Source: JBDREC01 sp043820105 [NCBI: Pseudomonadota bacterium] (GTDB lineage Bacteria > Bdellovibrionota_F > JAHFAK01). From it: a stretch of 9,713 nucleotides of DNA. The notes under the pieces were generated by a model. The model had not been told where the DNA came from, made no database searches, and saw nothing but the letters and a program-made list of their open reading frames with translations. Positions 1-9,713 of this stretch are shown here, one piece after another. Both the position numbers and the translations under genes were made by a program. How positions within the stretch are numbered: the first letter of the stretch is position 1; the number at the start of each line of letters is the position of its first letter. Location of the stretch: the NCBI GenBank assembly GCA_043820105.1, contig JBDREC010000110.1, positions 1 through 9,713 of the forward strand, read 5' to 3'.

Positions 1-23
1 CCATATTATATATATGGCAGATA

Positions 24-62
24 TGAAAACAAAATGCAAGCAAATTCGAATGCGAATTTGCT
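24..62 (-). terminator. Intrinsic terminator of the SDR gene
   Basis: A perfect 10 bp stem (AGCAAATTCG at 39-48 and CGAATTTGCT at 53-62) closes a 4-nt loop. It starts seven bases after the SDR stop codon when read on the minus strand. Downstream on that strand comes the T-rich run TGCATTTTGTTTT. The stem is the strongest hairpin in the window, although the T-run is interrupted by a G and offset by a few bases. The other strand is also moderately T-rich after the stem, so it could act in both directions. The terminator role is inferred from position and shape. Confidence 0.65.
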
Positions 63-68
63 ATTATT

Positions 69-851
69 TCATATTTTTACTTTTTGGTGCCTATTTAGTG
101 ATTTTGAGGGCTTTATAAGACGTTTATTGCGGAATCGCTGACCATTTACTGGAATATCTATCCCAGTTACAAAAAGCTCTTCATCCATTAAAAAATGAAC
201 TGCTTTACAAATATCTTCAGGTTTTCCCCATCTTTTTAATAAAACCTGTTGTGCTTTTTTTTCTATTTCTTCTTTGCTTGTTTTTTCTGGAGCTAGGATG
301 GGTCCTGGGGAGATTGAGTTAACTCTTACTTGTGGAGCTAATTCTTTTGCTAAGGCTTTTGTAATTGAATCAAGACATGCTTTTGAAACAGAATAGGGCA
401 GATATCCTTTAAAGGGGTTTTTAACGCTTTCACAGGTAATGTTAATAATATTTCCTGTTCCCATAGTTCTCATTTTTTTCCCTAAAATAAGTGACAATAG
501 ATAAGGTCCCTTTGCATTAACAGACATAAAGGTATCAAAACTTTCTTCATCCAGGTTATCAAAGGCAGTTCTATAAAAGATGGAGGCATTATTGATGAGA
601 GTATTAATATGAATATTTTTTTCACCCAATTCTTTGCAGGCCTTTTTAATTTCTTCTGCTTTTGTAAGATCAAAGTGTGTTAAGATGCATTCACTGCCAA
701 AGGAAGTTAATATTTGCTGAGTTTCTAGCGCATCCTTTTCAGATCTATAATGATGCAAAACAATATTATACTTTTTCTTAGCCAAATAAATTGCAAGTTC
801 TTTTCCTATTCGTTTGCCTGCTCCTGTTATTAATACCCATTTATTATGCAT
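69..851 (-). CDS. SDR-family oxidoreductase, pteridine reductase-like
   Basis: This is a 260-residue NAD(P)H-dependent short-chain dehydrogenase/reductase with a Rossmann fold, probably cytoplasmic. The cofactor loop TGAGKRIG (residues 9-16) carries the Arg typical of the pteridine reductase branch (TGxxxRxG; FolM, PTR1). NNAS at 87-90, YSVSK at 153-157 (catalytic Tyr153 and Lys157) and the VRVNSISPGPI stretch (175-185) complete the fold. Members of this branch reduce dihydrobiopterin or dihydrofolate, so a role in pterin or folate reduction is likely. The position 13 residues before Tyr153, normally Ser or Asp, is Cys140. The family usually ends soon after the VNGQ segment, but here a basic tail of about 20 residues follows. 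The ATG at 849-851 has a good Shine-Dalgarno sequence, AGAAGGT (857-863), six bases upstream. The gene diverges from the ABC-F gene and stands alone. The SDR fold is certain; the substrate is inferred. Confidence 0.9.
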   Translation of the reverse strand: MHNKWVLITGAGKRIGKELAIYLAKKKYNIVLHHYRSEKDALETQQILTSFGSECILTHFDLTKAEEIKKACKELGEKNIHINTLINNASIFYRTAFDNLDEESFDTFMSVNAKGPYLLSLILGKKMRTMGTGNIINITCESVKNPFKGYLPYSVSKACLDSITKALAKELAPQVRVNSISPGPILAPEKTSKEEIEKKAQQVLLKRWGKPEDICKAVHFLMDEELFVTGIDIPVNGQRFRNKRLIKPSKSLNRHQKVKI

Positions 852-872
852 TATATACCTTCTAAATTTTTT

Positions 873-907
873 TTAACTCTTAACTCTTAACTCTCAATTC
901 TTAACTC
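873..907. repeat. Five-unit heptamer tandem array in the SDR leader
   Basis: Five exactly adjoining 7 bp units: TTAACTC at 873-879, 880-886 and 887-893, a variant TCAATTC at 894-900, then TTAACTC at 901-907. Two decayed units (CTAATCT, CTAAATC) may continue it to 921. The array lies between the candidate SDR promoter and its ribosome binding site, so the SDR transcript would carry repeated GAGUUAA. A unit count that is not a multiple of three matters little here because the array is untranslated. Confidence 0.85.
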
Positions 908-911
908 CTAA

Positions 912-939
912 TCTCTAAATCATCCTTATTTTATGTCAA
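912..939 (-). promoter_or_regulatory. Candidate sigma-70 promoter for the SDR gene
   Basis: On the minus strand a perfect TTGACA -35 box (934-939) is followed, 16 bp on, by a poor -10 box TAGAGA (912-917, three of six consensus bases). Transcription would begin near 905, inside or at the edge of the heptamer array. The -35 box is convincing; the -10 is weak, so the call is tentative. Confidence 0.35.
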
Positions 940-951
940 ACGTATTTTTTG

Positions 952-980
952 TTTACTAATTAATTTTATGGTAATATAAT
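952..980 (+). promoter_or_regulatory. Sigma-70 promoter for the ABC-F gene
   Basis: A perfect TATAAT -10 box (975-980) lies 17 bp after TTTACT (952-957, four of six -35 bases). Transcription would start near 987, giving a leader of about 40 nt. That leader contains the G+C-rich stretch CGGTAACGGTAACGGG (986-1001) and the palindrome CACGTG (1002-1007), both standing out from the AT-rich surroundings. Confidence 0.6.
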
Positions 981-1026
981 TGAATCGGTAACGGTAACGG
1001 GCACGTGATTAAGAAAAAAGGTAAAT

Positions 1027-2868
1027 ATGGCGCTTATATCTGTACATAATATAACAAAAGGATTTTCGGATCGTAATTTGTTTTCTGATGTTTCTTTTCA
1101 TATTAATGAGAAGGATCGTATTTGTCTTGTTGGACCTAATGGAGCAGGGAAATCTACGATACTTCGCATTCTTTTAGAGCAATCAAAACCTGATGATGGG
1201 ACAGTGTCAGTGCATCCAAATACCAGAGTCGGATATTTGCCTCAAGAGATTGATTATCATTCAAGCAAATCAGTTATAAAGGAAGTCTTAGCATCGATTC
1301 CAGAGGGCAAGCAAACTGCCAGAGATGAAGCAGAAGCTAGAAAAATTCTTCATGGAATGAGTTTTTCTCAAGAGGACATGGAAAGTCTGATTGAATCTTT
1401 ATCAGGTGGATGGAGAAGGCGGGTGTTTTTTGCAAAACTATTATTTGAAAAACCTGACCTTTTATTGCTTGATGAGCCTTCAAACCATCTTGATATAGAT
1501 AACTTATATTGGCTTGAGGATTATTTGAAATCTTTTTCTGGTGCTGTTTTTATGATAGCTCATGATCGATATCTAATAAATAAGGTTTGTAATAAGATTT
1601 ATGAAATAGATTCTGGTTACTTTGTTAAATATACTGGAAATTATAATTTATATTTAGAGGAAAGACTTAAGAATCAAGAGCTTCATGAAAAAAGAATAGA
1701 AGAGCAGAAAAAAGAAATGGCTCGCCTGCAAGAATATATTAATAAAAACAAGGCTGACAAGAGAAGGGCTGCCCAGGTTAGAAGTCGTCAAAAAGTTCTT
1801 AATAAGATGGAACGTATTCAACCTTTAAAATATTCAAAAAAATTAAATTTTAAAATTCCTCAACCTGACAGGGGTCCTGATACTTATATTTGTGCAAAAG
1901 GTGTTGATAAGGCTTTTGGTGAAAAAATTGTTTTAAAAAATCTAGATCTAAACTTAAGAAGAGCAGAAAAAGCCGCCATTGTTGGAGCTAATGGTTGTGG
2001 AAAAACAACCTTGCTGAAGATATTGGCAGCGAATCTTCAAAAAGATGCAGGTGATGTTTCTATTGAGAGTAGGTTAAGTGTGTTCTATTATTCCCAACAT
2101 TCAATGGAAGATTTAAATGAGGAAAAAACGGTTTTAGACGAATTTACAAGCATTGCTACATATAACAACTTTCCAGATATTAGAAAGTTTTTAGGTCTTT
2201 TTTTGTTTTCGCAGAATGAAGTAGAAAAAAAGATAAAAATTTTATCAGGTGGTGAAAGAGCACGCCTGACTTTAGCTAAAATGTTTTTAATCAAACCTGA
2301 TTTGCTGATTCTTGATGAACCAACTAACCATTTAGATATAGCTTCAAGAGAAGTTTTAGAAAATGCCTTAATTCAGTTTTCTGGTGCAGTGATTTTTGTG
2401 TCGCACGATAGAACCTTTATTCAAAATATTGTTAATAATATTTATGAAATGATTGATGGTAAGCTTGAGCATTATATTGGGAATTATGAAGACTATTTAA
2501 GGAGGAAAGCTCCAGGGATTATTGAGGAAGATAAAGAAGTGAAAAGCGAAAAGGAAAAAGGGAAAAGTGAAAAGACTGATAAGAATGAAGATAGAAGTAA
2601 AAAAAGAGAAGAAGCAGAAGAAAGAAATAGAATTTATAAGATAAAGAAAAAGATTCAAGATAAGATAGATAAGATCGAAAAGAAGATGTTGGAAGCAGAA
2701 GAAAGAATGAAGGAAATAGAGGGGTTTTTATTGGAAGAAGAAGTTTATAAGAATAAAGATTTGTTAATAGTATTGAAAAAAGAGCATGATGATTTGAAGT
2801 GGCAGCTTCATGAATTTGATAAAGAATGGGAAGAGCTGGTTGAAGAGTTATCTGTTATTGAAAATTGA
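1027..2868 (+). CDS. ABC-F family ATPase (ribosome-associated translation factor)
   Basis: A 613-residue soluble protein with two ABC ATPase domains in tandem and no membrane segment, the ABC-F layout. Domain 1 has Walker A GPNGAGKST (36-44), signature LSGGW (125-129), Walker B LLLLDE (145-150) and switch His179. Domain 2 has Walker A GANGCGKTT (320-328), signature LSGGE (406-410), Walker B LLILDE (426-431) and His460. The charged linker between them (about 210-285) corresponds to the arm that contacts P-site tRNA in this family. A lysine/glutamate-rich C-terminal coiled coil (about 500-613) resembles the extensions of Uup and YheS. ABC-F proteins act at the ribosomal E site to relieve stalling, and some protect against antibiotics; which role applies here cannot be read from sequence. 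The ATG at 1027 follows AAGGT (1018-1022) with a short spacing. The gene is transcribed alone, divergent from the SDR gene. Confidence 0.93.
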   Translation: MALISVHNITKGFSDRNLFSDVSFHINEKDRICLVGPNGAGKSTILRILLEQSKPDDGTVSVHPNTRVGYLPQEIDYHSSKSVIKEVLASIPEGKQTARDEAEARKILHGMSFSQEDMESLIESLSGGWRRRVFFAKLLFEKPDLLLLDEPSNHLDIDNLYWLEDYLKSFSGAVFMIAHDRYLINKVCNKIYEIDSGYFVKYTGNYNLYLEERLKNQELHEKRIEEQKKEMARLQEYINKNKADKRRAAQVRSRQKVLNKMERIQPLKYSKKLNFKIPQPDRGPDTYICAKGVDKAFGEKIVLKNLDLNLRRAEKAAIVGANGCGKTTLLKILAANLQKDAGDVSIESRLSVFYYSQHSMEDLNEEKTVLDEFTSIATYNNFPDIRKFLGLFLFSQNEVEKKIKILSGGERARLTLAKMFLIKPDLLILDEPTNHLDIASREVLENALIQFSGAVIFVSHDRTFIQNIVNNIYEMIDGKLEHYIGNYEDYLRRKAPGIIEEDKEVKSEKEKGKSEKTDKNEDRSKKREEAEERNRIYKIKKKIQDKIDKIEKKMLEAEERMKEIEGFLLEEEVYKNKDLLIVLKKEHDDLKWQLHEFDKEWEELVEELSVIEN

Positions 2869-2937
2869 TTGTTTTAGGAGGTTTAAATAAATTAGAATAA
2901 TCAATAATTAATAAATAATAATTAATAATTAATTTTT
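2869..2937. other. AT-only spacer between convergent genes with an orphan Shine-Dalgarno sequence
   Basis: This spacer separates the ends of the ABC-F gene and dgt. It contains AGGAGG (2876-2881), a perfect Shine-Dalgarno sequence with no usable start codon or open frame after it. From about 2890 to 2937 it is almost purely A and T, built from repeated AATTAATAAT-like units that can pair only through A-T bonds. I see no G+C-stabilised terminator for either gene. Confidence 0.5.
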
Positions 2938-4101
2938 TTAGACTTTTACAAGAGGATCAAAGAGCTTATTGTATTCGTCAATTGCATATCTATCAGTCAT
3001 ACCCGCTACATAATCACAAACTATTCTTTTTAGACTGTTTTCTTTATCAACTTTCTTTTGGATTTTGTGTGGCATCATTTTGGGATTATTTAGGTAAGAA
3101 TTGAAAAGCCGGTTAATAATCATTCTGGCTTTTTCTTCCATTCTGACAACTCTGTAATGTCTGTATAGATTTCCCATTAAAAAATCCATTAATTGATAAT
3201 TGTATTCATGCATTTTCTCACTGAATTTAGCTAAAAAGTTTTCTGCATTTCTGATATCATTTATTGTGTTAATATTATTTTGGTTTATATTAATACTGGT
3301 TTGTTCAATTAGGTCATTTAATTGCAGTTCAAGAATTTGTTCTATTGTTTTTTTAATCATCATCTTGCGATTTCTGATTTGGAATTTATCAAGGACTAGC
3401 TTTACTGCTTCTTTCCAAAGTTCAAGATCATTGAGCATTTCATATTTTAATAAACCTGACTGCAAACCATCATCAAGATCGTGGGCATTAAAGGCTATCA
3501 CATCTGTTAAATTTATTATTTGGGCTTCTAAAAATGGTTTATCTTCTGGATTTAAATCTACAGGTACTTCTGAATAATCATAACTTGTTGTATGTTTTAT
3601 AATGCCTTCTCTGAGTTCATAGCAGAGATTTAGGCCTTCTACATCTGGTAAGGCATATTCAAGTTTATCAACAACTCTTAAACTTTGCTCATTGTGACTG
3701 AATCCTTTTTCAGCTTCCATTAATTCATTAAGAATCTTTTCACCAGCGTGTCCAAAGGGAGTGTGGCCAATGTCATGGGCAAGAACTAAACCCTCAATAA
3801 GATCTTCATTTAATTTTAAAGCCCTGGCTATGATTCTTGAAGCCTGGGAAACTTCAATTGAATGTGTTAAGCGAGTTCTATAATGATCACCTTCATGGTT
3901 TACGAAAACTTGGGTTTTATATTCAAGGCGCCGAAAAGCTTGGGTTTGAATAATTCTTTGAATATCAATTTGAAAATCAGTGCAATAGGGATGTTTTTCT
4001 TCTTTTATTCTTCTTCCTTTGCTTTGGGCGCATTTAACAGCAAAAAGAGCAAGATTCTCCAGTTCCCTTTTTTCTAATTCATTAGTTGTTAATGTTGTCA
4101 A
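2938..4101 (-). CDS. dgt: dGTPase-like deoxynucleoside triphosphohydrolase (HD superfamily)
   Basis: A 387-residue cytoplasmic enzyme expected to hydrolyse dGTP or other dNTPs to deoxynucleoside and triphosphate, helping to set dNTP pools. The HD metal site is complete: His80 in RLTHS, His109-Asp110 in HDIGHTPFGHAGE (109-121, also with His113 and His118), and Asp200 in NLTD, followed by the family motif NAHDLDDG (205-212). SHNEQS (135-140) and the N-terminal TQAFRRLEYKTQVF region (53-66) are also typical. The length matches the shorter dGTPase-like class rather than the roughly 500-residue E. coli enzyme. No in-frame ATG lies near the N-terminus; translation starts at TTG (4099-4101), supported by a strong ribosome binding site. 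Upstream lies a 412 bp structured intergenic region with a sigma-54-like promoter. The gene ends convergently with ABC-F. Which nucleotide it prefers, and whether it needs dNTP activation, cannot be told from sequence. Confidence 0.93.
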   Translation of the reverse strand: MTTLTTNELEKRELENLALFAVKCAQSKGRRIKEEKHPYCTDFQIDIQRIIQTQAFRRLEYKTQVFVNHEGDHYRTRLTHSIEVSQASRIIARALKLNEDLIEGLVLAHDIGHTPFGHAGEKILNELMEAEKGFSHNEQSLRVVDKLEYALPDVEGLNLCYELREGIIKHTTSYDYSEVPVDLNPEDKPFLEAQIINLTDVIAFNAHDLDDGLQSGLLKYEMLNDLELWKEAVKLVLDKFQIRNRKMMIKKTIEQILELQLNDLIEQTSININQNNINTINDIRNAENFLAKFSEKMHEYNYQLMDFLMGNLYRHYRVVRMEEKARMIINRLFNSYLNNPKMMPHKIQKKVDKENSLKRIVCDYVAGMTDRYAIDEYNKLFDPLVKV

Positions 4102-4107
4102 AGTATA

Positions 4108-4114
4108 CTCCTTA
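4108..4114 (-). promoter_or_regulatory. Strong ribosome binding site fixing the dgt TTG start
   Basis: On the minus strand TAAGGAG lies six bases before TTG at 4099-4101. It is the best-placed Shine-Dalgarno sequence in the window and is the reason to accept the TTG start. Confidence 0.85.
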
Positions 4115-4146
4115 TTAATAGCTTTTTAGCTTCTAACTTTTCTAAT

Positions 4147-4248
4147 AAAAAAAACTTGATCAAGCAAGAAAGAAGTTGTCCCACTTTTGAAGCCTAATCT
4201 TCACGCTTTCAGTTTTGAATTATTTTAAGATGTAGAATTTATAGGCTC
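4147..4248 (-). ncRNA. Candidate structured small RNA or dgt leader
   Basis: This is the stretch directly downstream of the sigma-54-like promoter at 4258-4275. Read on the minus strand, AGCCTA at its 5' end (4242-4247) pairs with TAGGCT (4191-4196). Immediately inside, ATCTT pairs with AAGAT, giving a nested stem around an AT-rich loop. It ends with the palindrome CTTGATCAAG (4155-4164) followed by eight T residues (4147-4154), which could stop transcription, although a stem of 3-4 pairs is weak for a terminator. The whole could equally be the first part of a long dgt 5' leader. I match it to no known RNA family. The evidence is structural only. Confidence 0.22.
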
Positions 4249-4257
4249 AATTTTTTT

Positions 4258-4275
4258 TTGCATGAAATGTGCCAG
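4258..4275 (-). promoter_or_regulatory. Candidate sigma-54 (-24/-12) promoter pointing towards dgt
   Basis: On the minus strand CTGGCACA, four bases, then ATGCAA matches the RpoN consensus YTGGCACG-N4-TTGCW, with exactly 10 bp between the invariant GG (4273-4272) and GC (4261-4260). The mismatches are A for the final G of the -24 element and ATGC for TTGC. The predicted start is near 4248, leaving about 147 nt before the dgt TTG. It could drive dgt, a small RNA, or both. No activator gene is visible nearby. Confidence 0.45.
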
Positions 4276-4310
4276 TTTTAGTTTTATCTTTTAAAAATCC
4301 TAAACTGGCA
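4270..4310. repeat. Inverted repeat upstream of dgt
   Basis: TGCCAGTTTTAG (4270-4281) and CTAAACTGGCA (4300-4310) are inverted copies apart from one extra T, separated by 18 bases. The left arm overlaps the -24 element of the sigma-54-like promoter. Neither strand has a T-run after the right-hand arm, so it is not an intrinsic terminator. The right arm overlaps a second palindrome, CTGGC-ATG-GCCAG (4305-4317). A protein-binding role is possible but unproven. Confidence 0.55.
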
Positions 4311-4430
4311 TGGCCAGAACCAAAAAGGGAATCAACACATCATCTTAATTCAAAATTAATTGCTAGTATCAAGTGGCTTCAGCTATCGGACTTCGGGCTA
4401 CAAGGACTCAATATTTTAGCTTATTTTTTA

Positions 4431-4490
4431 CTATGGTAGATGTACCAGTTTTACGTCCCTATGGTGGGTCAGTTTTCAATCCCATTGGCA
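4431..4490 (-). mobile_element. Possible remnant of an IS21-like element end
   Basis: Read on the minus strand from 4490, the sequence begins TGCCAATGG and then has two repeats, each AAAACTG followed shortly by ACCATAG (4476 to 4459 and 4452 to 4431). The phrase GAAAACTGACCCACC closely resembles, from memory, the multiple terminal repeats at IS21-family ends, which begin with TG. A third related unit lies at 4265-4280 (14 of 16 bases identical to 4438-4453). No transposase, second end or target duplication can be seen in the gap 4102-4513. It could instead be a set of regulator binding sites. Confidence 0.28.
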
Positions 4491-4513
4491 GAGGCTAAAA
4501 AAATCAATGTGAT

Positions 4514-6322
4514 TTAATTACCATTATCATTAAAAAACTCTATATAGTCGCTTTCATTTTCTATTAAATATGAATGTTTTCCTATTAAAGGTGTTTTTCC
4601 TTTGCGAAGCATTATTATTTGGTCTGAATCTTTTATAGTTGAAACTCTATGTGCAATCGTTAGTGTTGTTTTGTACCTAACAGCGTTTGGCAACGAATTA
4701 TAAATTGATTTTTCAGTAATATTATCAAGTGCTGACGTAGGTTCATCAAGAATAAGGATATCAGGATTTTTTACTAAAGCTCTAGCCAAAGATATACGTT
4801 GCTTTTGACCTTCTGAAAGATTTTTACCTTTTTCTTGAATTTTTGTTTCGTATTTTTCTGGAAGGCTTTCTATGAATTCGTGAATTCCAGCAATTTTTGC
4901 TGCTTTTATGATTTCACTCATAGAAGCTTCCAGATTACCATATCTTAAGTTTTCTGTCACTGATCCTGTTAGTAATGTTGTGGATTGTGCTACATATCCA
5001 ATTCTGTTTCTTAATGATCTTACATTATATTCCAGGACATTTTTGTTATCAAAAATTATATGGCCTTTTGTTGGTCTATAAAGCTGCATTATAAGTGAAA
5101 TGAATGTTGTTTTGCCAACGCCACTTTCACCAATAATGGCCCAGTTTTCACCTTTATTTATTTTTATTGAAATATTATTAAGGATGGTTTTTGGGGGATC
5201 ATATGAAAAAGATACATCTTTAAATTCAAGATCTCCTTCTAGTTTGTCTATCTTTAAACCAACTTCAGTATTAGGTTCTGGGATTGTTTCAAATAGTGCA
5301 ACAGTTCTGTTCAGAGCTGCTTTTGCGCTTTGATATTGATTAATACTTGAGCTTAAGAAATTAACTGGACCATAAACATAACCAAGGTAGGAACGAAATG
5401 CAATTAAACTTCCTAATGTCCAATGGTCTGTAATTACCCAATAAGCCCCAAAACCCAAGACAAAATATTCAGCCAGTTTTGGAACAAAAGTTTGCAGAGT
5501 ACCACTTAAAGAATTCAACATTAATTGTTCATTAGCCAGTCTATTATTTTGTTTTATTTCATCACATATTTTTGTAATTGAACGCTGTTCTGAAGCAAAG
5601 GCTTTTATTAGTGGGATCGAGGAAAGCAGCTCCTGGAAAACGCCCTGATATCTTGCATGTCTTTCGCTATTTCTGTGACTCATTATATATGTTCTTTTTG
5701 CAAAAAACCGTGTAACAAATACTGAAATTGGTAAAAACAAAATAACAGGCACAGCTATTCGCCATTCAAGATAAACTAAAAATCCAACACCACCAAAAAA
5801 TTTTATAATATGAACAAAGATTTGAACTACAGTGCTTGAAAAAAACCATTTAATACTACCTAGGTCTCCAGTTAAGCGGGACATTAAATAGCCTTGCTGT
5901 ATTTTATCAAAAAAGCTTTTTGGCAGGGATAAAATTCTTTGAAGGAGTTTGGTTTGCAGGTCTAACATCACTTTTTGATCAAATCTTGTATTGTAAAACA
6001 TGTTTAATTTGCTAGATGTTTGAGTGATTATCATAATACTTGCCATTAATCCAAGTACTGGTAACAAAAGGACTAACTGCTTTTTCATTATTACATCATC
6101 AATAAGATATCTTGAAATTAAGGGCATTGGAAAGGCTAGCATAGAATTTATAAATAGCAATGTATAAGCAATTGCACCTAATTTCCAGTATTTAAATACA
6201 GAAGGAAAAATATAGGCTAAGCTTTCTTTAAGCTTTCCATAGCTTTTCCCTTTTGGAATTGAATCTTCAGGAAGCTCAGCTTTAAGAGCTTGTTTTAGTA
6301 ATTTTAACCATTCATTCTTCAT
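4514..6322 (-). CDS. ABC exporter half-transporter (fused membrane and ATPase domains)
   Basis: A 602-residue type IV ABC exporter expected to work as a dimer in the inner membrane. After about 45 cytoplasmic residues the membrane domain runs to about 330, with hydrophobic segments near 48-70, 85-103, 163-183, 188-205, 280-298 and 305-325. The ATPase domain follows: A-loop Tyr374, Walker A GESGVGKTT (398-406), Q-loop Gln446, signature LSEGQ (502-506), Walker B DILILDE (521-527), D-loop SALD and H-loop His558. The signature has Glu at the variable third position; the Ser and the following Gly that contact ATP are kept, so it should be active. There is no C39 peptidase domain. The substrate (lipid, peptide or drug) cannot be told. 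The ATG at 6320-6322 has only a weak AAAAG upstream. It diverges from the metallopeptidase gene across a shared 245 bp control region and has no clear terminator. Confidence 0.92.
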   Translation of the reverse strand: MKNEWLKLLKQALKAELPEDSIPKGKSYGKLKESLAYIFPSVFKYWKLGAIAYTLLFINSMLAFPMPLISRYLIDDVIMKKQLVLLLPVLGLMASIMIITQTSSKLNMFYNTRFDQKVMLDLQTKLLQRILSLPKSFFDKIQQGYLMSRLTGDLGSIKWFFSSTVVQIFVHIIKFFGGVGFLVYLEWRIAVPVILFLPISVFVTRFFAKRTYIMSHRNSERHARYQGVFQELLSSIPLIKAFASEQRSITKICDEIKQNNRLANEQLMLNSLSGTLQTFVPKLAEYFVLGFGAYWVITDHWTLGSLIAFRSYLGYVYGPVNFLSSSINQYQSAKAALNRTVALFETIPEPNTEVGLKIDKLEGDLEFKDVSFSYDPPKTILNNISIKINKGENWAIIGESGVGKTTFISLIMQLYRPTKGHIIFDNKNVLEYNVRSLRNRIGYVAQSTTLLTGSVTENLRYGNLEASMSEIIKAAKIAGIHEFIESLPEKYETKIQEKGKNLSEGQKQRISLARALVKNPDILILDEPTSALDNITEKSIYNSLPNAVRYKTTLTIAHRVSTIKDSDQIIMLRKGKTPLIGKHSYLIENESDYIEFFNDNGN

Positions 6323-6453
6323 CTTTTATTACAAATTTTCAGTAATTCTGATTGTTTTCCTTAAAATATTTGATAAATGTTGTAGTTTAATTTCACCTTA
6401 TTTAATAAATTTCAATATAATTCTTTTGGGGCACAATATGGTCATTTAAAATT

Positions 6454-6468
6454 TTAAAACTGTTTTAA
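6454..6468. promoter_or_regulatory. Palindrome, candidate enhancer-binding-protein site
   Basis: TTAAAAC-T-GTTTTAA is a perfect palindrome with 7 bp arms, centred at 6461. It lies about 79 bp upstream of the start predicted from the sigma-54 promoter, within the usual range for NtrC-type activator sites. The half-site AAAACTG also recurs upstream of dgt. It is AT-rich, so chance is a real alternative. Confidence 0.35.
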
Positions 6469-6513
6469 TTTATGTAAGTGCTTGTAATTAGTAGTCTCTC
6501 TTTACTTCTAGAA

Positions 6514-6530
6514 TGGCATGCTATTTGCAT
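6514..6530 (+). promoter_or_regulatory. Sigma-54 (-24/-12) promoter of the metallopeptidase gene
   Basis: TGGCATG (6514-6520), CTAT, then TTGCAT (6525-6530) matches TGGCACG-N4-TTGCW except T for C at one position. GG (6515-6516) and GC (6527-6528) are exactly 10 bp apart. The predicted start is near 6540, giving a 28-nt leader to the GTG at 6568. Such promoters need a AAA+ activator bound upstream; none is encoded in the window. Confidence 0.75.
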
Positions 6531-6567
6531 TATTTTAAAAATAGTATTATTTTAATGGGACCATATT

Positions 6568-7791
6568 GTGAAGTATCTGAATAAAATAATTATTTTAATA
6601 TTTTATTTCTTAACATATTCACCTGTCAATGCTTCTGTCTGCATCAACTTGTTTAATTATATAGAAGATTTTCAAGTCTATTATGAGTCTAGCACTGTTG
6701 TTAAAAAAGCTATTAAGGAAGCTCAAAGACGTAATTCAATAAATAATAAAGATAAGGCAAGCAAGGAAATTGAACATAGACAAAAAGTTTTAAAAAGTCT
6801 TTTGGAGATTACTGGCAATCAATTCCTTCCAAAGTATTTTCAAGATAGAGTAAGCATAAAAAAAATCTCTGTTTATGTTTTTGATCTGCTCGAGGCTGAA
6901 TCACAAAAGGCTAGAAATATTTTTAATATCGCAGGGGAATCAGTAAAGATGTTGGAAAGCATTTTTGGAATTAAATCAGGTACAATATTAATTTGGATGT
7001 TTGACCATTTATTTTGGGACGTTTATTTAGAAAGATCTGAATCAAGAAGTGATTATGGTTTCAATCTTTTTTATGAGGACAGACTGCAATCGATTTTTAT
7101 ACCAAGAGACTCTGAGGGTATATTAAATAAAATGCTTGAGGCTTTAGCTCAAGTTGACAATGAAGTTGATATGGCACGTGTTTGTAAAGCTTATAATGTG
7201 GCAAATAAGCAGGCTTTGCTTTATTATTGGTCATCAATTTCGGAAGATGTGTTGTATTGGATGTCCCCACTTCGAGTTGAGGGTATTTCTCATGAACTTG
7301 CACATCATTTTATGCATAAAAGTGGTTTGCATTATAGAGTAAGCTCTACGGTTGCAGAGATAATACCAGCCTTACTTCAATTATATATAGCTGAAGAATT
7401 AATTGTACCAGAATTAGAAAGTCATGGTATTAAGACACACCGTGAGGGTGTTAAACTCTTGAGAGAAATTAATGAAAAAAAGTTGAGTTTATTTGTTTCA
7501 AATAAAAAAGCAGTTATCTCACGACATTCATTTTTTAAACCAAATCCTTTAATTTTCAAATGGTTTTATTTAATGATTTTAAATCAGTATGCAGATAAAT
7601 TTTATGGACAGGATGGTTTTATTAAAGCCCTTATAGATATGATGTTAAAAGAAGACGCTAATATTAGCAATCAACGTTTTGTTGAATTAACAGCCATGGC
7701 TTATAATGCTTCAACAAATAGTTTTTTGTCTGTTGATGAATTTTTAAAAAGACAGGAAAGTGAACTGTTATACATCTTATATAGAGAATAG
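6568..7791 (+). CDS. Putative exported HExxH zinc metallopeptidase, family not recognised
   Basis: A 407-residue protein I cannot assign to a named family. The N-terminus has Lys2 and Lys6, a hydrophobic core (7-18) and VNA-S at 20-23, fitting a signal peptidase I site after Ala22. Cys25 follows, but no good lipobox is present. No other membrane segment is evident, so it is probably periplasmic or secreted. The key feature is HELAH at 242-246, a zinc-binding HExxH motif inside a helix (GISHELAHHFMH). Glu264 in STVAEIIPALLQL, 17 residues after His246, is a fair candidate third ligand, giving a gluzincin-like layout. The N-terminal half (35-230) is charged and helical without a recognised domain. 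Translation starts at GTG (6568-6570), with GGGA about eight bases upstream. A sigma-54 promoter precedes it. It diverges from an ABC exporter and converges on a histidine kinase. Export and zinc binding are likely; substrate is unknown. Confidence 0.8.
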   Translation: MKYLNKIIILIFYFLTYSPVNASVCINLFNYIEDFQVYYESSTVVKKAIKEAQRRNSINNKDKASKEIEHRQKVLKSLLEITGNQFLPKYFQDRVSIKKISVYVFDLLEAESQKARNIFNIAGESVKMLESIFGIKSGTILIWMFDHLFWDVYLERSESRSDYGFNLFYEDRLQSIFIPRDSEGILNKMLEALAQVDNEVDMARVCKAYNVANKQALLYYWSSISEDVLYWMSPLRVEGISHELAHHFMHKSGLHYRVSSTVAEIIPALLQLYIAEELIVPELESHGIKTHREGVKLLREINEKKLSLFVSNKKAVISRHSFFKPNPLIFKWFYLMILNQYADKFYGQDGFIKALIDMMLKEDANISNQRFVELTAMAYNASTNSFLSVDEFLKRQESELLYILYRE

Positions 7792-7856
7792 AAATTAAAT
7801 AAATTATAACATTAATATCACTAAAATGTCTCACAAGTATTTCAATGCTATTAAAG

Positions 7857-9506
7857 CTATACTAATGGCAATGTAATTGTAAACTTTGTGCCTTGGTTTA
7901 CTTCAGAAGCACACACTATAACTCCACCTTGGGATTTGATAATTTCTCTTGCTATATATAGTCCAATTCCAATTCCTTCCACTTTACCAGTCATATATTT
8001 TTCAACTTGTACAAAACTATCAAAAATATAAGCTATTGCTTCATTTGAAATGCCAATGCCATTATCTTCAATTGTAATAATCGCTTTGTCAGTTGTTTTT
8101 GAAAGCTTGATGCTAATTTGAGTTTTTTCAGGATTAAATTTAATTGCATTTTCAACAATGTGCCCTATGGACTTAATCATACTTTCTTCATTAAATAGGC
8201 ATTGTATGGAAGTATCAGAATAGTTCTTAATTAATTTTATTTTTTTGTCTTTAGCTGAATTTGTGTGTTTTATGCAGATTTTATCTAGCAGATCTTTAAT
8301 GATTATATTTTGTTTTTTAAGCTCATTTGACATTTGTTCATTACTAAAATTTGTCAAATCAAGCAGAGAAAGAATTATGCGTGTTAAATTTTTTGATTGT
8401 TTAATTGCTCTTTCAAGGCAGTCTTTGATTTCGCTGTCCTGATTACATATTTTTGAGTGAGAAATTAGGTTAAGATTTAGATTTAATATTTGAAGTGGAG
8501 TTCTAAGTTTATGCGAAAGAGTTGAAAGAAAAATTGTTTTTAGATTTTCAGTATGTCTTTGTTTTGTAATATCTTTAAAAACAAATAAATAACCATCGAT
8601 TTCATTGTCAGATGTATATAATCTTTCGATATCTGTAGAATATACCAGGCCTTGATTTTTAAATTCCAAATCAACAGAAGCATTTTTTACATGTTGAATC
8701 AGCTCTTCTAGGGAAATAGTCAGAGAAGATTGAGAAAAAATTGGAGCTATATTGTTGCCTTCATCAATATTATTCAAAAAATGAAACATATCTTTTGCTG
8801 AAGAATTTATTATTGAAACCTCAAAATCAGGATTAGTGTATATTAGGCCATCGCTAACTGATTGGAATATTGAAAAGAGCTTGTTTTGCCCATCAGTTAC
8901 ATTGGTCATGAGGTCAAAAGCTTCAATAATTCTACCAATATACTGTGTGAAAATAGAAATTGGTTTTAGATTTTTATCTGTTATTTCTTTTTCTCCAGTT
9001 GGGTTTCCAATAAAAATAATGTGAGTTAATTGATTATATTTTTTAATTGGAAGAATTCCTATTATTTGAGTTTCAAAGTATTGACTGAGGTGGTGAAAAA
9101 TATATTTAAAATCACTTTCTTCTGAATTAAGTTTTATTTCTTGGTTAGCAAGAAGATTAAATACTATATCTGTATCCATGGTCATGGTTTTAAGCTTAAA
9201 CTGTTCATTGTCAATTCCAAGACAGTTTGAAACCTTTAAACCACCCTTCGTTGCCTGAGTCAAAACTACTTCTGAGATATTAAATGTTTCAGAGATTAAA
9301 CTGCAAATTAAATTTACAAGTTCTACTTTTGATTTTATATTCTTAAGATGACTTGCTGGATTGAATAAGGTTTCAACATTGTTAATATAGTTACTTAATA
9401 TGTCTGGTTTGAAATTGTTTATAGGAGTGTCTTGGTTGCTCCCTTTTATTTGGTTCACCATTTCTATGTACCATCCCATTTCATTGTTGCGCGATGGCTC
9501 AAGCAA
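7857..9506 (-). CDS. Soluble GAF-PAS sensor histidine kinase
   Basis: A 549-residue cytoplasmic sensor kinase with no membrane segment. A GAF-like domain (about 55-195) is followed by a PAS domain (about 205-315, ending FVFKDITKQ), a HisKA dimerisation domain with FLSTLSHKLRTPL (326-338, His332 phospho-acceptor), and an HATPase_c domain (about 440-549) with N-box HIVENAIKFNP (Asn453), DNGIG (481-485), FDSF (495-498) and GIGIGLYIAR (511-520). The residue after His332 is Lys333, where Glu or Asp is normal. It has no receiver domain and no response regulator lies in the window. The frame opens at TTG (9504-9506), immediately after an in-frame TAA, with no clear Shine-Dalgarno sequence; Met10 (9477-9479) or Met16 (9459-9461, preceded by GGGATGG) are alternative starts. 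It converges on the metallopeptidase gene across 65 AT-rich bases without a clear terminator. Its signal is unknown. Confidence 0.92.
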   Translation of the reverse strand: MLEPSRNNEMGWYIEMVNQIKGSNQDTPINNFKPDILSNYINNVETLFNPASHLKNIKSKVELVNLICSLISETFNISEVVLTQATKGGLKVSNCLGIDNEQFKLKTMTMDTDIVFNLLANQEIKLNSEESDFKYIFHHLSQYFETQIIGILPIKKYNQLTHIIFIGNPTGEKEITDKNLKPISIFTQYIGRIIEAFDLMTNVTDGQNKLFSIFQSVSDGLIYTNPDFEVSIINSSAKDMFHFLNNIDEGNNIAPIFSQSSLTISLEELIQHVKNASVDLEFKNQGLVYSTDIERLYTSDNEIDGYLFVFKDITKQRHTENLKTIFLSTLSHKLRTPLQILNLNLNLISHSKICNQDSEIKDCLERAIKQSKNLTRIILSLLDLTNFSNEQMSNELKKQNIIIKDLLDKICIKHTNSAKDKKIKLIKNYSDTSIQCLFNEESMIKSIGHIVENAIKFNPEKTQISIKLSKTTDKAIITIEDNGIGISNEAIAYIFDSFVQVEKYMTGKVEGIGIGLYIAREIIKSQGGVIVCASEVNQGTKFTITLPLV

Positions 9507-9540
9507 TTAGCACACCGCATCATGAATTGCAACAAAAAAA

Positions 9541-9570
9541 TAATATACCTATGTTTTTGGGTGTATTAAA
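9541..9570 (-). promoter_or_regulatory. Candidate kinase promoter with embedded dyad
   Basis: On the minus strand TTTAAT (9565-9570) and TATATT (9542-9547) are spaced by 17 bp, three and five of six sigma-70 consensus bases. An inverted repeat, TAATATACC (9541-9549) and GGTGTATTA (9560-9568) on the plus strand, differs at one base pair and covers the spacer and parts of both boxes. That is where a repressor or MerR-like activator would sit. The start would be near 9535, about 30 nt before the TTG codon. Confidence 0.35.
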
Positions 9571-9665
9571 ATTATGGATCATCTCCAATTTGAATACCTA
9601 AACAATAGAGCAGCAGTTTTCAGTTAAATCTGAGAAGAAGAGCACAAAAAATCATTAACCTCATC

Positions 9666-9689
9666 TTAATCCTAATCATAATCATAATC
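9666..9689. repeat. Short hexamer tandem repeat
   Basis: Four adjoining NTAATC units (TTAATC, CTAATC, ATAATC, ATAATC), followed by CTAAGATTAATCC. Like the 873-907 array it is a short, pyrimidine-biased, intergenic repeat with TAA in each unit. No gene is visible between 9507 and the window end apart from these elements; the ATG reading inward from 9713 stops after five codons. Confidence 0.6.
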
Positions 9690-9713
9690 CTAAGATTAAT
9701 CCAATGGTTTCAT

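What the first reader, a model, noticed from the sequence alone, without database searches (positions are those of the whole stretch)
6514..6570. Near-consensus sigma-54 promoter drives an exported putative metallopeptidase
Seen: TGGCATG-CTAT-TTGCAT with exact GG-N10-GC spacing, 28 nt between predicted start and GTG. Known: RpoN promoters are unusually recognisable and need an ATP-dependent activator. Inferred: the peptidase is made only on a specific signal rather than constitutively, which is uncommon for an uncharacterised exported peptidase.
Basis: partly seen in the sequence, partly recalled or inferred. Interest (0 to 1): 0.65.

Follow-up and report, generated by a model that had tools for sequence, protein, structure and literature searches.

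The report
Sigma-54-like promoter inside start-codon hairpin
A sequence that looks like a switchable bacterial promoter sits inside a long inverted repeat ending exactly on the gene's start codon, so messages begun upstream should be unreadable while messages begun at this promoter should be readable, a trick known from a bacterial virus.

Summary
The -24/-12 element is real: TGGCATG-CTAT-TTGCA at 6514-6529, 11 of 12 to the consensus, GG-N10-GC, 28 nt before the only plausible start codon (GTG 6568). Chance gives 0.027 such sites per window; shuffles of its own intergenic region give 3 in 20,000. In 149 genomes of one phylum, 142 with rpoN, the pattern is 4.8 times commoner than its reversed control. 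A genuine sigma-54 promoter is likely, about 0.75, but unproven: no genome is held for this window, so rpoN could not be sought, and no orthologue of the peptidase was found.

The promoter lies in the 3' arm of a 139-bp inverted repeat (6432-6570) whose outer 12 bp are perfect and end on the GTG. RNA starting upstream is predicted to bury the start codon (18.3 kcal/mol to open); RNA starting at the sigma-54 site costs 7.0. This is the logic of T4 lysozyme gene e and I-TevI, with sigma-54 in place of the late promoter. Best reading: upstream transcripts are silent and only sigma-54 transcripts are translated. Both transcripts remain predictions.

The parts
6514..6529 (+). sigma-54-like -24/-12 promoter element TGGCATG-CTAT-TTGCA (GG 6515-6516, GC 6527-6528)
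   Evidence: consensus seen in PMC9765219
6540..6567 (+). predicted 28-nt leader of the sigma-54 transcript (start site inferred)
   Evidence: inference; RNA 6541-6640 folds no better than shuffles (z = +0.61)
6432..6570 (.). 139-bp imperfect inverted repeat; arms of about 65 nt, collinear
   Evidence: arm alignment score 51, 0 of 3000 shuffles reach it (inner part alone 24 of 3000); + strand RNA 6428-6575 z = -5.09; - strand z = -3.71
6432..6443 (+). 5' outer arm CACAATATGGTC
6559..6570 (+). 3' outer arm GACCATATTGTG, perfect complement of the 5' arm; its last three bases are the GTG start codon
6392..6421 (+). candidate sigma-70 type promoter TTCACC-18-TATAAT, predicted start near G 6428, four bases before the repeat
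   Evidence: 10 of 12; such sites occur at chance density in the window (44 found, 47.2 expected)
6568..7791 (+). exported putative zinc peptidase, 407 aa; signal-peptide-like N terminus, HELAH at aa 242-246, Glu 264
   Evidence: no family over its cut-off, no PDB relative at E 0.001

Best explanation
6514-6529 is a working sigma-54 promoter that starts transcription near 6540, inside the 3' arm of a 139-nt inverted repeat whose last three bases are the GTG start codon. Any transcript begun upstream of 6432 (for instance from the TATAAT at 6416-6421) carries both arms, folds into one long hairpin and hides the ribosome site and start codon, so it is poorly translated. The sigma-54 transcript lacks the 5' arm and can be translated. 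The exported peptidase would then be made only when an enhancer-binding activator fires sigma-54. Shown: the element, the repeat, the computed energies. Inferred: sigma-54 in this organism, both start sites, the translational effect.
For: Site above chance and in the right place. In 149 genomes, 142 with PF04552, the exact pattern occurs 390 times against 81 for the reversed control, so about 79% of hits exceed the control before position is used. Inverted repeat: 0 of 3000 shuffles reach the arm score; folding of 6428-6575 z = -5.09, 0 of 200 shuffles as good. Opening -15..+12 costs 18.3 to 20.0 kcal/mol for 7 of 7 tested 5' ends from 6323 to 6431 and 6.3 to 7.8 for 12 of 12 from 6446 to 6550; 0 of 300 shuffled leaders reach 18.34. 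Of 900 mechanical ORF starts from L001-L080, 3 gain as much from a 140-nt over a 28-nt leader, and 0 of the 117 with G+C under 38%. All 4 of 4 transitions between the arms keep pairing as G-U in the + strand RNA (one in 16 by chance). Precedent: T4 gene e and I-TevI.
Against: No evidence of rpoN or of an activator for this organism; none among the window's six genes. The 7 calibration genomes in which PF04552 was not found still hold 12 pattern hits against 2 controls, so enrichment does not track the detected gene cleanly (these may be incomplete). The upstream promoter that the silent transcript needs is a chance-grade match. No relatives, so no covariation test. The inner part of the repeat folds no better than shuffles alone (z = -1.07). 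In a scan of 320 segments with 30 Markov shuffles each, the segment at 6421 has z = -2.5 and ranks third, behind 4801 on both strands. Twelve-base inverted repeats arise in 154 of 4000 shuffles of 6323-6600. 74 of 900 ORF starts, mostly richer in G+C, have an opening cost of 18.3 or more with a 140-nt leader. The short leader has a weak Shine-Dalgarno and costs more to open (7.0) than 4 of the 5 other gene starts of the window with 28 nt (2.3 to 4.8; the histidine kinase 13.7). Predicted sigma-54 sites have failed on mapping before (Chlamydia pneumoniae, PMC3333780).
Confidence: 0.4

Rival explanations
1. An ordinary sigma-54 promoter; the inverted repeat acts on DNA, for example as two binding sites for an activator or repressor (arm centres 127 bp apart, at about -103 and +24 from the predicted start), or does nothing.
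For: Same promoter evidence. The upstream arm lies where activator sites of sigma-54 promoters often lie (recalled). Outer 12 bp perfect, inner arms diverged. Both strands fold better than shuffles, as a DNA palindrome would.
Against: Arms stay alignable over about 65 nt, longer than a binding site needs; 4 of 4 transitions favour the + strand RNA; the downstream arm ends on the start codon.
Confidence: 0.35
2. The match is coincidence in an organism without sigma-54, or at a site it does not use; the peptidase is transcribed by the housekeeping polymerase.
For: rpoN not testable. 8 of 300 shuffled windows hold such a site. In the calibration genomes controls make up about a fifth as many hits (81 against 390). 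Predicted sites have failed before.
Against: Position and strand: 3 of 20,000 shuffles of the own intergenic region; only 7.5% of strand positions in the window are upstream of a gene.
Confidence: 0.18
3. The 139-bp repeat is a palindromic mobile element (MITE-like) or its remnant that landed at the gene start and happened to bring a promoter.
For: Long, end-to-end inverted repeat with a short centre.
Against: No further copy of the outer arm in the window with up to 2 mismatches (the rest of the genome could not be searched); no target-site duplication seen by eye beside 6432 and 6570; the end falls exactly on a start codon that the protein's signal peptide needs.
Confidence: 0.07

Closest known systems
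Phage T4 gene e (lysozyme) and I-TevI leader hairpins (PMC3014915, PMC2988022; passages seen)
   Same: A long transcript hides the ribosome site and/or start codon in a helix; a promoter placed close upstream gives a shorter transcript without the 5' part of the structure, which is translated.
   Different: There the inner promoter is a phage late promoter; here it looks like a sigma-54 promoter of a cell. Here the structure spans about 139 nt and ends on the start codon. Here nothing has been measured.
Classical sigma-54 promoters (consensus in PMC9765219; passages seen)
   Same: GG-N10-GC, TGGCAYG-N4-TTGCW, suitable distance to the start codon.
   Different: No rpoN, no activator gene and no known activator site could be shown here.
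RNA thermometers and other start-site hairpins (search listing only; otherwise recalled)
   Same: Start codon buried in a 5' leader helix.
   Different: The outer helix is 12 uninterrupted base pairs closing a 139-nt structure, and a sigma-54 transcript would bypass it.

Membership tests
sigma-54-dependent promoter | -24 GG and -12 GC elements at fixed spacing, near consensus | tested here: met
   11 of 12, GG-N10-GC
sigma-54-dependent promoter | genome encodes RpoN | not testable with these tools
   no genome held for the window; near relatives not found
sigma-54-dependent promoter | enhancer-binding activator and its upstream site | tested here: inconclusive
   no activator among the six genes of the window; the 5' arm at 6432-6443 is a possible site only by position
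sigma-54-dependent promoter | transcript starts about 12 nt after the GC and depends on RpoN | not testable with these tools
   needs RNA
T4 gene e type promoter-in-hairpin switch | start region paired in the long transcript, more open in the short one | tested here: met
   by prediction only: 18.3 against 7.0 kcal/mol; 6428-6575 z = -5.09, 6541-6640 z = +0.61
T4 gene e type promoter-in-hairpin switch | an upstream promoter really makes the long transcript | tested here: inconclusive
   one candidate at 6392-6421, at chance density
T4 gene e type promoter-in-hairpin switch | structure conserved in relatives | tested here: inconclusive
   no relative of the peptidase found
gluzincin-type zinc peptidase (label recalled) | HExxH and a downstream Glu | tested here: met
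   HELAH 242-246, Glu 264
gluzincin-type zinc peptidase (label recalled) | profile or structural match to a peptidase family | tested here: not met
   no peptidase family: only DUF4355 at E 0.093, 13.4 bits against a cut-off of 25.4; NCBIfam none at E 0.1; PDB only a sortase at E 0.6; fragments none; structure model unusable, pLDDT 33.7
known regulatory RNA family | Rfam match | tested here: not met
   0 matches at gathering score in the window

The most novel reading that the evidence does not exclude
A chromosomal bacterial gene uses the T4-lysozyme trick with sigma-54 as the inner promoter: housekeeping transcripts are made but silent, and the activator-dependent sigma-54 promoter, embedded in the 3' arm of a hairpin that closes on the start codon, is the only one whose message can be read. 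Leak from the housekeeping polymerase is thus blocked at translation.
Probability: 0.35. Interest if true: 0.6.

Novelty: new variant of a known kind. Interest (0 to 1): 0.42.

Why it matters
If true, a signal-gated gene would have a second lock: promoter choice decides not just whether the message is made but whether it can be translated. It would show that a logic known from phage T4 also serves cellular sigma-54 genes, and it would give a search rule (sigma-54 site inside a hairpin that ends on the start codon) for other genomes. It would also suggest that the peptidase is costly or harmful at the wrong time.

Tried and rejected
Finding rpoN in the organism: no genome held. Placing the organism: dGTPase-like protein at most 52% identical in the 80 loci kept of 408 relatives, and on a branch of 0.83 with no starred set in a quick tree of 81 rows; ABC-F protein 32 to 37% over the matches longer than 500 query residues in 25 genomes, with higher values (up to 42%) only on shorter pieces of a list that was cut, and 31.1 to 38.2% in the 30 plasmid records listed of 2212, all 2212 under 60%. 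The lineage stays unknown.

Orthologues of the peptidase: none in genome contigs (29 pattern matches, no relative), viral contigs (7 pattern matches, no relative) or plasmids; at E 0.001 0 of 5, 0 of 145 and 0 of the same 5 again; at the looser limit 0.1, 7 of 198 (best 0.0096) and 8 of 297 (best 0.0062), all short pieces, taken as chance. Only phyla reachable from the loci could be searched, so other phyla are untested.

Second sigma-54-like site (minus 4274-4259, 10 of 12) as support for sigma-54 in this genome: not used, because its TGGCA part lies in a local inverted repeat and in a repeated unit, so it may be a by-product of that repeat.

Structure of the peptidase: single-sequence AlphaFold2, mean pLDDT 33.7; no fold search was made on it. 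PHROGs and PADLOC were not searched. Rfam: none at gathering score. Exact 31-base promoter pattern in viral contigs: 0. Whole window in plasmids by megablast: no match.

Literature: Melainabacteria (a guess at the lineage) with sigma-54, rpoN or sigma54: 0, 0 and 0 papers; Margulisbacteria with sigma54: 0; two-transcript leader searches: 0, 1 and 0 papers (the one was not opened); one search found 62 papers, 12 listed, of which only PMC3014915 had been opened. These searches are narrow and do not show that the arrangement is undescribed.

The repeat finder did not list the 12-bp inverted repeat; it was seen by eye and confirmed by script. The calibration uses one phylum, reached through a locus titled Spirochaetes; its kinship to the window is unknown and its base composition was not measured. 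Its 7 genomes without a PF04552 match hold 12 hits against 2 controls.

Full report
Observation. The element TGGCATGCTATTTGCA is at 6514-6529 on the + strand, with GG and GC ten bases apart. It matches TGGCACG-N4-TTGC(T/A), the consensus printed in PMC9765219 (passages seen), at 11 of 12 positions. Across the window and both strands it is the best site. Shuffled windows hold a site this good in 8 of 300 cases; Markov models of order 1 to 3 predict 0.016 to 0.027 per window, from 4 to 7 events each in 5 million bases, and shuffles of the intergenic region 6323-6567 hold one on the + strand in 3 of 20,000. The start codon is well fixed: an in-frame stop at 6553, GTG at 6568, and no other ATG, GTG or TTG before TTG 6649, which lies after the signal-peptide-like stretch.

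Calibration. In 149 genomes of the phylum of one genome (reached through locus L012, titled Spirochaetes), 142 carry the RpoN DNA-binding domain PF04552. The pattern TGGCAYG-N4-TTGCW occurs 390 times in these 149, its reversed control 81 times. So about four in five exact hits exceed the control even before position is used. Two reservations: the 7 genomes without a PF04552 match hold 12 hits against 2 controls, perhaps because they are incomplete; and their kinship to the window is unknown. In Chlamydia pneumoniae, mapped start sites did not support earlier predicted sigma-54 promoters of protein genes, though two small-RNA candidates kept the core (PMC3333780, passages seen).

The bases 6432-6443 (CACAATATGGTC) and 6559-6570 (GACCATATTGTG) are perfect reverse complements, and the last three of these are the start codon. 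Aligning the two halves of 6428-6575 shows arms alignable for about 65 nt to the middle: score 51 against a shuffled mean of 20.9, reached in 0 of 3000 shuffles; without the outer 12 bp, 24 of 3000. As RNA the + strand of 6428-6575 folds at -38.4 kcal/mol, z = -5.09; the - strand at -25.8, z = -3.71. Larger stretches are less extreme: 6428-6640 z = -3.31, 3 of 200 shuffles as good; 6323-6567 z = -2.48, 3 of 200. In a scan of 320 segments with 30 Markov shuffles each, the segment at 6421 has z = -2.5 and ranks third, behind the two strands of 4801. The inner part folds no better than chance alone (z = -1.07 on the + strand, +0.16 on the - strand). In the alignment of the arms 50 columns match, 11 are gaps, 6 are transversions and 4 are transitions; all 4 keep a G-U pair in the + strand RNA, none in the - strand RNA. 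This leans towards selection on RNA, weakly.

Consequence for translation. Freeing -15..+12 around GTG costs 18.3 to 20.0 kcal/mol for 7 of 7 tested 5' ends from 6323 to 6431; it falls from 16.8 to 8.3 for the 4 ends from 6434 to 6443 and is 6.3 to 7.8 for 12 of 12 ends from 6446 to 6550, among them the predicted sigma-54 start (7.0 at 6540). In 300 shuffled leaders none reaches 18.34 (mean 9.1, highest 17.0). Among 900 of 913 mechanically called ORF starts from loci L001-L080, 3 show as large a difference between a 140-nt and a 28-nt leader (11.3 or more) and 74 reach the absolute cost of 18.3; among the 117 with G+C under 38% none does either. The sigma-54 transcript is therefore predicted to be readable and any transcript from further upstream not. 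The neighbouring gene upstream is divergent, so such a transcript needs a promoter within about 6323-6431 or read-through against the exporter; the best candidate is TTCACC-18-TATAAT at 6392-6421, but such sites occur at chance density (44 found, 47.2 expected). This is the weakest link.

Mechanism. I judge a genuine sigma-54 promoter about 0.75 likely and the two-transcript switch about 0.4. It works like T4 gene e, where longer early transcripts form an inhibitory structure and late promoters just upstream of the ribosome site give transcripts without its 5' part (PMC3014915, passages seen), and like I-TevI (PMC2988022, passages seen). Membership of a family is not claimed: nothing was measured and no relative shows conservation. 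The main rival is a plain sigma-54 promoter whose inverted repeat binds a protein or does nothing; arm centres lie about 103 bases upstream and 24 downstream of the predicted start.

The gene. The 407-residue product starts with a signal-peptide-like stretch and has HELAH at 242-246 and Glu 264, a gluzincin-like arrangement (recalled). No family reaches its cut-off: in Pfam only DUF4355 at E 0.093, below its cut-off, none in NCBIfam at E 0.1, none for two fragments; in the PDB only a sortase at E 0.6. No relative was found in the collections searched. Its neighbours are an SDR protein, an ABC-F protein, a dGTPase-like HD protein, an ABC exporter and a histidine kinase. The dGTPase-like protein is at most 52% identical to anything kept and sits on a long branch: the organism seems far from the genomes reached.

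Check against the calls. On the second reading I corrected the count of upstream 5' ends (7, not 8) and their lower value (18.3), the ABC-F identities, and added the hits in genomes without PF04552, the 74 of 900 starts and the sub-threshold hits. None of these moved the odds enough to change them.

Noticed in passing
4102-4513: 412-base intergenic stretch with imperfect direct repeats (4250-4280 and 4423-4453, 71%) and a 16-nt inverted repeat (4270-4285 / 4295-4310); looks like a decayed element end, perhaps IS21-like (recalled, not tested); no match in plasmids by distant search.
   Followed up: partly
4259-4274 (minus): Second-best sigma-54-like site of the window, 10 of 12, GG-N10-GC, upstream of the dGTPase-like gene at 4101; overlaps the repeats above.
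   Followed up: partly
6568-7791: Exported HExxH protein without any relative found in the collections searched: a possible new peptidase family.
   Followed up: partly
1-9713: The two proteins tested for placement are far from the genomes reached (dGTPase-like at most 52%; ABC-F 32 to 37% over long matches): an unplaced lineage.
   Followed up: partly
39-62: Ten-pair hairpin AGCAAATTCGAATGCGAATTTGCT just after the SDR gene's stop, read as terminator-like on both strands by the scan.
   Followed up: no
4801-4948: Segment inside the ABC exporter gene with the lowest folding z-scores of the 320-segment scan on both strands (-3.3 and -2.57).
   Followed up: no
4101 (minus): The dGTPase-like gene seems to start with TTG behind a good AAGGAG, while the peptidase's GTG has only a weak GGGA.
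   Followed up: no
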